The position numbers and the translations under genes are program-made. Below, piece by piece: positions 24,656 to 38,600 of a DNA stretch of 64,000 nucleotides (the first letter of the stretch is position 1; every line of letters starts with the position of its first letter). The notes under the pieces are model-generated. The model saw only the letters and a list, made by a program, of their open reading frames with translations. It had not been told where the DNA came from and made no database searches. Origin of the DNA: an uncultured Atopobiaceae bacterium (GTDB lineage: Bacteria; Actinomycetota; Coriobacteriia; Coriobacteriales; Atopobiaceae); NCBI GenBank assembly GCA_947625405.1, contig CANQOF010000001.1, forward strand, positions 62,001 to 126,000, read 5' to 3'.

Positions 24656-24904
24656 CTAGCCGATCGAGCCCTGCGGGAACGTGAGCATGAGGATGAAGAG
24701 CGTCACGCCGAAGACGCAGCACGCGATGATCGTCATGCGGTCGAGGTTCTTCTCGACGACGCCCGAGGCAGCCGTGTTGTACATGGACTGCGCGAGCATG
24801 TCGGAGAGGCCCGTGCCCTTGCCGGAGTGCATGAGCACGAGGACGATCGACGCGAGGGCCGAGATGGCCCAGATGATGATGAGCAGGATGTTGTACCAAG
24901 TCAC
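24656..24904 (-). CDS. secG: Preprotein translocase subunit SecG
   Basis: 82 residues; GTG start at 24904 with GGAG eight bases upstream. Two membrane spans (about 4-24 and 58-78) flank the conserved SecG cytoplasmic loop LMHSGKGTGLSDM. SecG assists SecYE in protein export. Its position after gap-pgk-tpiA is a common arrangement in Gram-positive bacteria. Here 247 bases with palindromic repeats separate it from tpiA, so it may have its own promoter. Confidence 0.95.
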   Translation of the reverse strand: MTWYNILLIIIWAISALASIVLVLMHSGKGTGLSDMLAQSMYNTAASGVVEKNLDRMTIIACCVFGVTLFILMLTFPQGSIG

Positions 24905-24961
24905 GAAAGGGCTCCTAACCAGGTTGCAAGCAAGAACGACCTGTCAGGTTAGCATATGCAG

Positions 24962-25030
24962 CCATGCCGTATGGGCCACTCTTTCTTCCTTCGCAAAGCG
25001 AAGTCAAAAAGAGTGGCCCATACGGCATGG
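24962..25030. repeat. Long perfect palindrome (hairpin element A)
   Basis: A perfect 23-bp inverted repeat (24962-24984 with 25008-25030; arms begin CCATGCCGTATGGGCCACTC) encloses a second small hairpin CTTCGC-aaa-GCGAAG. The same apical hairpin with flanking TTTCT and TCA is found in the neighbouring element B at 25079-25141, while the outer halves of the stems differ completely. It lies between tpiA and secG. Confidence 0.9.
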
Positions 25031-25040
25031 AAACAAAACC

Positions 25041-25065
25041 GCACCCCGCGCGCTGCGCGGGGTGC
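25041..25065 (-). terminator. Probable tpiA terminator
   Basis: An 11-bp GC stem GCACCCCGCGC/GCGCGGGGTGC with a three-base loop lies between the two larger palindromes. On the minus strand it is followed by GGTTTTGTTT, so it can end the gap-pgk-tpiA transcript. Confidence 0.65.
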
Positions 25066-25078
25066 ACTGAATTTCCGA

Positions 25079-25141
25079 GGGCACAAAGAACCTTCTTTCT
25101 GCCTTCGCGCAGCGAAGTCAGAAAGAAGGTCCCTTGTGCCC
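25079..25141. repeat. Long palindrome (hairpin element B), paired with element A
   Basis: A 23-bp inverted repeat (25079-25101 with 25119-25141) encloses CTTCGC-gca-GCGAAG. Two positions are not perfect complements in DNA, but in a minus-strand RNA both become G-U wobble pairs, leaving a fully paired stem; on the plus strand they would be A-C mismatches. It ends 11 bases from the tpiA stop. Confidence 0.9.
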
Positions 25142-25151
25142 GAGGTCATAC

Positions 25152-25916
25152 CTAACTGCTCTTGCGAACCATGCTTGCAAAGTCGGCCGCCACGAGCGAG
25201 GCGCCGCCCACGAGCGCGCCGTCCACGTCGTCGCAGGCCACGAAACCGGCGATGTTGCCGGGCTTGGCGCTGCCGCCGTAGAGGACGCGGATCTCGTCGG
25301 CGAGGTCGCCGAACATCTCGCGGAGCGTGTCGCGAATGGCCTTGCACACCTCTTCGGCGTCGTCGGCCGTCGCGGTCTCGCCGGTGCCGATGGCCCAGAT
25401 GGGCTCGTAGGCGATCACGAGCTGGTCGCCGCGCTCGAGCGGAAGGCCGGCGCAGTCGGCCTTGATCTGCGAGACGACGTGCTCGACGTGCTTGCCGGCC
25501 TTGCGGACCTCGAGCGATTCGCCGCAGCAGAGGATCGGGGTGATGTTGCCCTCGACGAGGACCTTCGCCTTGCGGTTCACGTCCTCGTCGCTCTCCTTGA
25601 AGTAGTCGCGACGCTCGGAGTGGCCGATGATGCAATAGGTACAGCCCACGGAGTCGAGCATGTCGCGGCTCGTCTCGCCGGTGTAGGCGCCGGAGGCCTC
25701 CCAGTAGACGTTCTGGGCACCGAGGCCGAAGGGAGCCTTGTCGAACTCGATGACGCCCGCGACACCCTTGAGGTCCACGAACGGCGGGCACACGACGACT
25801 TCCACGCCGTTCGTACCGTCGGCGAGCTCTTGGGAGAGCTGCTGGGCGAGCTCAACGCCCTCGCCGTAGTTCTTGTTCATCTTCCAGTTTCCGGCAATGA
25901 GGATGGTCCTAGGCAT
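25152..25916 (-). CDS. tpiA: Triosephosphate isomerase
   Basis: 254 residues from the ATG at 25916, overlapping the end of pgk by eight bases. It interconverts dihydroxyacetone phosphate and glyceraldehyde 3-phosphate. The catalytic Lys12 sits in GNWKMNK, the catalytic His in IGHSERR, and the catalytic Glu in [11 protein letters not shown]; the phosphate-gripping loop ends [11 protein letters not shown]. The longer upstream frame overlaps pgk and is rejected. Confidence 0.98.
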
Positions 25917-27105
25917 CGAGCAACGCCTCCACTCCAGGCAGGTCCTTGCCCTCGACGAGCTCCATCGAGGCACCGCCGCCAGTCGAAATGAACGTCATCT
26001 TGTCGGCCAGGCCGAACTTGTTGATGGCCGCCACGCTGTCGCCGCCGCCGATCACGCTCTTGCAATGATCGTTGGCCGCGATGGCCTCGGCCACGGCCTT
26101 CGTGCCGTGCTCGAAGCTCGGCATCTCGAAGACGCCCATGGGGCCGTTCCAGAAGACGGTGTTGGCCTTGGCGATGGCGTCGCCGAAGAGCTTCTCGGTG
26201 GCCGGCCCGATGTCGAGGCCCTGCCAGTCGGCCGGGATCTCGTCGGAGGCCACGACCTTGGTGTTCGCATCGTTGTCGAAGGCGTCCGCCACGACGGTGT
26301 CGATGGGGAGCAGGAGGTCGACGCCGTTCTGCTCGGCCTTCTTCATCATGTCCTTCGCGCGGTCGATCCAGTCCTCCTGCAGCAGGCTCTTGCCCACCTC
26401 GTAGCCCTTGGCCGCGAGGAAGGTGTAGGCCATTCCGCCGCCGATGATGAGGGTGTCGGCGGAATCAAGGAGGTGATCGATGACGCCGATCTTGTCGGAG
26501 ACCTTCGATCCGCCGAGGATAGCCACGAACGGGCGATCAGGATCGCCGAAAAGCCCGGTGAGGGTATCCACCTCGTTTTCCAGCAGGAATCCGGCGACGG
26601 CGGGCAGGTACGCGGCCGGGCCCACCACGGAGCCCTGCGCGCGGTGCGCGGTGCCGAAGGCGTCGAGCACGAAGATGTCGCCGAGGGACGCGAGGGTCTT
26701 CGCGATCTCGGGGTCGTTCTTCTTCTCGGCCTTCACGAAGCGCACGTTCTCGAGCACGAGCACCTGGCCCGGCTTGAGGGCGTCGGCCGCGGCCTTCGCC
26801 TCGTCGCCGTAGGTGTCCGGCACGAACGTGACGTCGAGGCCGGTGAGCTCGCGGAGCTTATCGGCCGCGGGCTTCAGGGAGAGTTTCGGCTCGGGGCCGT
26901 CGCCCTTGGGGCGGCCAAGGTGGCTCATGAGGATGACCTTGGCGTTATGGTCGACGAGGTACTTGATCGTGGGGATCGCGGCCTTGATGCGCGTGTCGTC
27001 GGTCACGTTGCCGTTCTCGTCCAGCGGCACGTTGAAGTCGACGCGCATGAGGACGCGCTTGCCGTCCACATCAATGTCGCGGACGGTCTTCTTGGTGAAT
27101 GCCAT
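25909..27105 (-). CDS. pgk: Phosphoglycerate kinase
   Basis: 398 residues, usual length. It transfers phosphate from 1,3-bisphosphoglycerate to ADP. Substrate-binding signatures are present: [20 protein letters not shown] at residues 21-40, SHLGRPKG, and [17 protein letters not shown]; the ATP-binding C-terminal half has [10 protein letters not shown] and a [14 protein letters not shown] loop. It is the middle gene of the gap-pgk-tpiA operon. Confidence 0.98.
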
Positions 27106-38081: not shown

Positions 38082-38168
38082 CCCCCGCGCTGGGATGTCT
38101 TCTGGGGTCGGCGTCCTTATGGTTCCCGCGCTGGGATGTTCTTGGGATCGGGGGTGCCTATAGTCCCC
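38082..38168. repeat. Two copies of a dispersed ~44-bp intergenic repeat
   Basis: Two tandem units built on CGCGCTGGGATGTCTTCT / CGCGCTGGGATGTTCTTG, each preceded by a TATRGTTCCC-like string, follow the PHP gene. The same unit appears at 15196-15243 and 51198-51264. The second copy runs into the outer arm of the nested inverted repeat. Confidence 0.8.
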
Positions 38169-38342
38169 GGAGCCCGGTTCCCGCTCGCTCGGGTAGCCGG
38201 CTTTCACCGGCCCTTTTTCTCGGGTGACACACCTCCAATTGGCATACGGGCTTTCTTACCGGCGGACCACTCCTCCGTGCCGAGAAAAAGGGCCTTCTCT
38301 TTTACGGCTCCCACAGGGCTCCGGGGACTATAGGCACCCCCG
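38149..38342. repeat. Nested inverted-repeat element, 194 bp
   Basis: Perfect 27-bp outer arms (38149-38175 and 38316-38342, starting CGGGGGTGCCTATAGTCCCC) enclose perfect 15-bp inner arms GGCCCTTTTTCTCGG (38209-38223) and CCGAGAAAAAGGGCC (38280-38294), with a further GCCGG/CCGGC hairpin near 38196-38211. No transposase or convincing gene lies inside. It could be a small mobile palindrome (MITE-like) or encode a highly structured RNA. Confidence 0.9.
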
Positions 38343-38377
38343 CCCTCGCAAGCTATTACGTCAACAAGCTACGAGCA

Positions 38378-38600
38378 AGGGACGAGCAAAACGTCAGCGA
38401 GGCCTCTCGTTAATCCTTGCTTCAACAAGATGAGGGCCAGGGACGAGCAAAACGACAGCGAGACCTCCCATTAATCCTCGCTTCAACAAGCAGCGAGCCA
38501 GGGAATCAGCAAAACGTCAGCGAGGCTCTTCGTGAGTCTTTGCTTCAACAACCGAAGAGCCAGGGACGAGCTAAACGTCAGCGAGGCGCTCTGGGGTGCC
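38378..38600. repeat. Tandem array of 61-62-bp units
   Basis: Units begin at 38378, 38439, 38500 and 38562 (the last partial). Each has a conserved block AGGGACGAGCAAAACGTCAG followed by CGAGG, a variable 13-base segment, a second conserved block TTGCTTCAACAA, and a variable 10-base segment. The third unit contains a perfect 9-bp inverted repeat, GGCTCTTCG with CGAAGAGCC, spanning the second conserved block. A partial related unit may precede at about 38350. No coding frame with a ribosome-binding site was found. Confidence 0.9.

What the first reader, a model, noticed from the sequence alone, without database searches (positions are those of the whole stretch)
24962..25141. Two neighbouring palindromes with shared apex, unrelated stems and wobble-preserved pairing
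Both elements have 23-bp arms and the same CTTCGC-nnn-GCGAAG cap, yet the outer stem halves differ while remaining self-complementary. In element B the two imperfect positions become G-U pairs only in minus-strand RNA. This is the pattern expected of a selected RNA hairpin family or a REP-like mobile palindrome.
Basis: partly seen in the sequence, partly recalled or inferred. Interest (0 to 1): 0.65.

Follow-up and report, generated by a model that had tools for sequence, protein, structure and literature searches.

The report
Covarying twin hairpins between tpiA and secG
Between two genes of an uncultured gut bacterium (family Atopobiaceae) lie two very stable hairpins with the same tip but different stems; a sister species keeps both and has changed their stems on both sides at once so that they still pair, so the pairing matters, but they are not scattered mobile repeats.

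Summary
A (24962-25030) and B (25079-25141) are 33- and 30-nt inverted repeats sharing CTTCGC-nnn-GCGAAG. They lie in the tpiA-secG gap, either side of an ordinary intrinsic terminator (25040-25066, minus). B's two imperfect pairs, and one in A, are G-U only in minus-strand RNA, the sense strand of tpiA and secG.

The sister species G004 has both hairpins and the terminator in the same order. Over the four hairpins, 98% of cells pair, 10 of 32 pairs change on both sides, and an A-G mismatch under the cap persists in all four. The apex is conserved and the outer stems run free.

They are not REPs: two copies in the genome, no second site in 120 relatives, no GTAG/CGTC tag, no Y1 transposase in either genome. 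The wobble bias is 4:1, too few to prove RNA.

Best reading: insulating hairpins, made in tpiA read-through RNA, between the glycolytic operon and the secG promoter. Rival: DNA palindromes whose arms are homogenised by template switching.

Following the pattern uncovered an unrelated, order-wide hairpin family (apex GTGCTCANACAG...CTGCGC; 25 of 107 genera; no Rfam match) with the same logic: fixed apex, unrelated but complementary stems.

The parts
24962..25030 (-). Hairpin A: 25-bp outer stem, then A-G/G-A mismatches, then the CTTCGC-TTT-GCGAAG cap (minus-strand RNA, -59.0 kcal/mol)
   Evidence: orthologue L037:331-393
25079..25141 (-). Hairpin B: 23-bp outer stem with two G-U pairs, A-G mismatch, then the CTTCGC-TGC-GCGAAG cap (-49.5 kcal/mol); starts 10 nt after the tpiA stop codon
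   Evidence: orthologue L037:218-280
25040..25066 (-). Intrinsic terminator between B and A: 12 pairs, 10 GC, tail GTTTTGTTTC; also covaries with the sister species
24988..25004 (-). Apex of A: A-CTTCGC-nnn-GCGAAG-G, the part conserved between A and B and between species
25102..25118 (-). Apex of B: A-CTTCGC-nnn-GCGAAG-G
24946..24954 (-). Putative extended -10 element of the secG promoter (TGC-TAACCT, hexamer 24951-24946), just after hairpin A; similar TGNTANNNT boxes precede secG in many relatives' gaps (by eye)
   Evidence: read; inference
24656..24904 (-). secG (PF03840)
25152..25973 (-). tpiA, triosephosphate isomerase (PF00121); probable start within this ORF near 25919
25909..27105 (-). 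pgk, phosphoglycerate kinase (PF00162), upstream on the same strand

Best explanation
A and B are two paralogous copies of one long hairpin element, duplicated before this species and its sister G004 split, kept either side of the intrinsic terminator that follows gap-pgk-tpiA and just upstream of the secG promoter. In tpiA transcripts, and in transcripts that read through the terminator, each folds into a 29- to 31-bp hairpin that most likely blocks 3'-to-5' decay of tpiA mRNA (B) and stops, or marks for double-strand-specific cleavage, RNA that would run into secG (A). The stem only has to pair; its sequence is free. The apex (CTTCGC cap with a fixed A-G mismatch) is kept in sequence, as a recognised tip would be. 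Shown: anatomy, gene context, conservation of order, maintained pairing, fixed apex. Inferred: action as RNA, insulation and decay block, the promoter. Unknown: what recognises the apex.
For: Same B-terminator-A order in the sister species. Across the four hairpins 98.3% of cells pair, 10 of 32 pairs change on both sides, 0/500 shuffles as high on any measure. Outer stems diverge more than spacers (25 of 92 against 10 of 85 positions, p about 0.01, though the two arms are not independent) while the apex diverges least (5 of 62). The A-G mismatch is present in 4 of 4 copies although many outer pairs changed, which argues against mere homogenisation of the arms. B begins 10 nt after the tpiA stop; a U-tailed terminator lies between B and A. 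Many relatives' tpiA-secG gaps hold a single GC-rich hairpin after tpiA and a TGNTANNNT box before secG, so the gap's constant job is to end one unit and start the next. Minus-strand RNA folds more stably than plus for three of the four hairpins and equally for the fourth.
Against: No transcript data. Wobble bias 4:1 is not significant. Only two species carry it; G002 and another tpiA-secG contig of G004 lack both hairpins and have one ordinary terminator-like hairpin, so the gap works without them. In the unrelated GTGCTCA hairpins of the order there is no sense-strand bias of wobbles (35 GU against 58 AC) nor a clear orientation bias to genes (22 against 15), so pairing there looks DNA-like.
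Confidence: 0.42

Rival explanations
1. DNA palindromes without a host role: remnants of a palindromic element that landed in a permissive gap and was locally duplicated; the arms stay complementary because replication template switching copies one arm onto the other.
For: Template switching homogenises inverted-repeat arms (PMC7202029, PMC8604942). Outer stems change faster than spacers while staying complementary. The same gap in another genus (G010) holds an unrelated 31-bp palindrome (L134:5113-5176) that resembles others dispersed in that genome. This genome carries other dispersed repeats with long inverted arms.
Against: Arm copying should also erase the A-G mismatch and the apex asymmetry, yet these survive in 4 of 4 copies. 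The element did not spread: one site with two copies.
Confidence: 0.35
2. REP/BIME element mobilised by a REP-associated tyrosine transposase (RAYT).
For: Short intergenic palindromes in a pair.
Against: No Y1_Tnp (PF01797) in this genome (98.5% complete) nor in G004, while it is found in G001 and G005 of the genus. Two copies only. No GTAG or CGTC end tag; published REP stems are 5-13 bp (PMC3733652). Most Y1 genes examined in relatives are flanked by other palindromes, none by these apices.
Confidence: 0.03
3. B and the terminator form a small RNA gene (one large hairpin plus a U-tailed terminator).
For: In G004 tpiA has its own additional 20-bp hairpin with a T-rich tail before B, so B plus terminator could be a separate unit.
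Against: No convincing promoter upstream of B; A is unexplained; in this genome B starts 10 nt after the tpiA stop.
Confidence: 0.08
4. A sequence-specific DNA operator for secG or tpiA.
For: Long palindromes; A abuts the probable secG promoter.
Against: The outer stem sequence is not conserved between A and B or between species; only the apex is.
Confidence: 0.07

Closest known systems
REP/BIME (GTAG- and CGTC-tagged repeats, PMC3733652)
   Same: intergenic palindromes near 3' ends of genes; complementary changes on both arms occur within families; proposed roles in termination and mRNA stability
   Different: two copies, not tens to thousands; 23- to 25-bp outer stems plus a 6-bp cap, not 5-13 bp; no tag; no RAYT; stems unrelated, apex conserved
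Intrinsic (rho-independent) terminators
   Same: GC-containing hairpin after a stop codon; one real terminator lies between A and B
   Different: A and B have no U tract, are two to three times longer and have a conserved apex
RNase III-processed intercistronic hairpins (general knowledge)
   Same: long near-perfect double strand between neighbouring genes on one strand, sequence-free stem
   Different: no evidence of cleavage here; conserved apex unexplained
GTGCTCANACAG...CTGCGC hairpins of the same order (found here, no Rfam match)
   Same: conserved imperfect apex, unrelated self-complementary outer stems, intergenic near gene ends; some copies even have the CTTCGC-TGC-GCGAAG cap (G008, L186)
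   Different: different apex internal loop; dispersed (up to 69 exact-pattern copies, G031); absent from G000 and G004; homology with A/B not shown

Membership tests
REP/BIME | many similar copies in the genome | tested here: not met
   two copies, adjacent
REP/BIME | RAYT / Y1 transposase in the genome | tested here: not met
   PF01797: none in G000 or G004
REP/BIME | GTAG or CGTC tag at one end | tested here: not met
   ends are CCATGCCG and GGGCACAA; flanks carry no tag (definition)
REP/BIME | stem of 5-13 bp | tested here: not met
   23-25 bp outer stem plus 6 bp cap
Intrinsic terminator | GC-rich hairpin followed by a U tract | tested here: not met
   met by 25066-25040 only; A and B not reported by the scan
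Known Rfam RNA family | covariance-model match at gathering score | tested here: not met
   only weak generic hairpin matches below gathering score
Selected hairpin with conserved structure | compensatory changes exceed controls | tested here: met
   10 of 32 pairs, 0/500 shuffles, slid controls 0-3; only four sequences, and A is not independent of B
Selected hairpin acting as RNA | wobbles favour the transcribed strand | tested here: inconclusive
   4 against 1
GTGCTCANACAG...CTGCGC hairpin family | that apex sequence | tested here: not met
   0 matches in G000 and G004
RNase III processing site | cleavage in the stem | not testable with these tools
   needs RNA data

The most novel reading that the evidence does not exclude
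Coriobacteriales carry several families of 'fixed apex, free stem' hairpins, of which A/B is a young local one and the GTGCTCA apex an order-wide one, in which an unidentified protein recognises only the apex while the outer stem may be any self-complementary sequence and turns over rapidly.
Probability: 0.25. Interest if true: 0.62.

Novelty: new variant of a known kind. Interest (0 to 1): 0.42.

Why it matters
The window itself holds a clean natural case of two hairpins whose stems were rewritten on both sides while the tip, mismatch included, stayed put. That separates 'the stem must pair' from 'the tip must be recognised' and can be tested with few mutants. The same logic, seen independently in an order-wide family with no Rfam match, suggests a general class of bacterial intergenic hairpins that sequence searches would miss because their stems are not conserved.

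Tried and rejected
Hairpin arms as ends of an insertion sequence: 30-nt arm matches lie about 2.5 kb apart, inverted, in G003 and G001, but what lies between is an mtnA-like gene and an ORF without a Pfam match, and the matches are arms of a separate 225-bp repeat; similarity to A is 31 nt at 84%, E 0.0135 in one of 60 genomes searched, not significant. REP/RAYT: rejected. Rfam: nothing at gathering score for A/B or the GTGCTCA loci. Scan of about 85,000 species genomes for TTTYTGACTTCGCNNNGCGAAG: only the sister species carries the hairpin; six other hits lack a matching outer stem, i.e. chance. RNA strand test on 60 copies of the GTGCTCA family: no sense-strand wobble excess, slight opposite bias, p 0.02. 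Orientation test: 22 against 15, not significant; a preference for gene 3' ends shows as 15 convergent against 5 divergent gaps (home-made gene caller). Earlier gene-caller runs were crude and their gene calls are not relied on.

Full report
What is there. The window is part of a 1.72-Mb genome whose close relative G004 corresponds to a record named 'uncultured Atopobiaceae bacterium'. At 24962-25030 (A) and 25079-25141 (B) lie two near-perfect inverted repeats with 3-nt loops, the only such long tight palindromes in the window. They sit in the 247-nt gap between tpiA and secG, both on the minus strand, downstream of pgk. Between A and B is an ordinary intrinsic terminator, 12 pairs with a GTTTTGTTTC tail. 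Chance is excluded: palindrome score 24 against a maximum of 13 in shuffled windows and a folding z-score of -15.5.

Anatomy. In the minus strand, A is 25 bp of outer stem, an A-G/G-A mismatch pair, then CTTCGC-TTT-GCGAAG; B is 23 bp with two G-U pairs, one A-G mismatch, then CTTCGC-TGC-GCGAAG. The outermost stems are unrelated; the cap and the few pairs next to it are shared.

Evolution. In G004 the same order B-terminator-A stands between tpiA and secG at 82% identity, with one more terminator-like hairpin right after tpiA. Of 32 pairs over the four hairpins, 19 never vary and 10 have changes on both sides; 98.3% of cells pair; none of 500 shuffles reaches the observed values and slid registers give 0-3. 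The terminator stem also changed compensatorily. Outer stems differ at 25 of 92 positions (A, B and terminator together), spacers at 10 of 85, apices at 5 of 62. The A-G mismatch below the cap is in all four. So pairing is maintained, the apex is conserved in sequence, and the outer stem sequence is free.

Which strand. Minus is the transcribed strand of both neighbours.

How widespread. The genome has only these two places. A covariance model of the four hairpins searched over 120 relatives finds only G000 and G004 at E below 1e-11; four weaker matching sites (E 0.01 to 4e-6) in the same family have other apices. A scan of about 85,000 species genomes for the cap with part of the stem finds the complete hairpin only in G004. 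In the survey of relatives' tpiA downstream regions none besides the own genome shows A or B; most gaps that lead to secG hold one ordinary hairpin after tpiA and a TGNTANNNT box before secG (boxes judged by eye). Neither G000 nor G004 has a Y1 transposase.

Mechanism. B follows the tpiA stop by 10 nt, then comes the terminator, then A, which ends about 10 nt before a probable extended -10 box (TGC-TAACCT). If that promoter is right, A lies upstream of the secG start and would exist as RNA only in read-through transcripts. The simplest reading is that B protects or defines the tpiA 3' end and A stops, or exposes to cleavage, RNA that passes the terminator. This is inference from position. The rival is that the palindromes are inert and their arms are kept alike by template switching, a known process (PMC7202029, PMC8604942); the persistent apex mismatch speaks against it being the whole story, because arm copying would remove it.

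A related pattern elsewhere. The weak model matches led to a separate hairpin family with apex GTGCTCANACAG...CTGCGC. It occurs in 76 of 299 genomes and 25 of 107 genera of the order; the reversed control pattern never matches. G031 has 69 exact-pattern copies. Outer stems differ between copies yet pair over about 20 bases at about 95% in the outermost part. At the leuC-leuD gap of two species of one genus, flanks and apex align while the outer stems are largely replaced and still self-complementary. No Rfam match in the loci tested; it is not beside the Y1 genes examined and is present in G008, which has none. Wobbles and orientation show no RNA strand bias there. I do not claim that A/B belongs to it: the apex differs and neither G000 nor G004 carries it.

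Verdict. Observation confirmed. Selected hairpin pair: supported for pairing, open for RNA against DNA. REP-like mobile element: not supported. Moderate interest in itself; more as the thread that led to the order-wide family.

Noticed in passing
L174, L181, L186, L169-L238 (e.g. L186:1501-1579); whole order: Order-wide hairpin family with apex GTGCTCANACAG...CTGCGC and unrelated, self-complementary outer stems: 76 of 299 genomes, 25 of 107 genera, 69 exact-pattern copies in G031, no Rfam match in the loci tested.
   Followed up: partly
L035:385-620, L058, L062, L066, L069 and others: A 225-bp repeat (starts CTTTACATAACATCNCAGAATTACACG, ends CAGAAACTCC..CGCGGCAG) with invariant AGTTTCTG/CAGAAA blocks between variable complementary stems; 18 aligned copies over 5 genomes of the genus, 4 of them in this genome; inverted pairs flank an mtnA-like gene and an ORF without a Pfam match.
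   Followed up: partly
window 38149-38342: About 200-bp MITE-like repeat with 30-bp, 97% complementary inverted ends (CGGGGGTGCCTATAGTCCCCGGAGCC...), roughly 20 or more long copies dispersed in this genome and present in relatives; no Rfam match.
   Followed up: partly
window 38350-38600: Four imperfect tandem units of about 62 nt (CTTCAACAAG...GCCAGGGACGAGCAAAACGNCAGCGAGG), parts of which recur elsewhere in the genus.
   Followed up: no
L120:14351-14411: Another isolated long hairpin (20-bp outer stem, GC-rich cap) in an intergenic gap of this genome.
   Followed up: no
L134:5113-5176, L137, L142: G010, another genus, has dispersed long palindromes with a GGGGGTACTCCCC core; one lies in its own tpiA-secG gap, independently of A/B.
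   Followed up: partly
window 24905-24951, minus strand: The secG leader has a conserved inverted repeat CTAACC...GGTTAG overlapping the Shine-Dalgarno region AGGAG; kept in G004.
   Followed up: no
L203, L218: In G031, two tandem hairpin pairs have a first copy with left arm and apex but an unrelated right arm, and an intact second copy.
   Followed up: no
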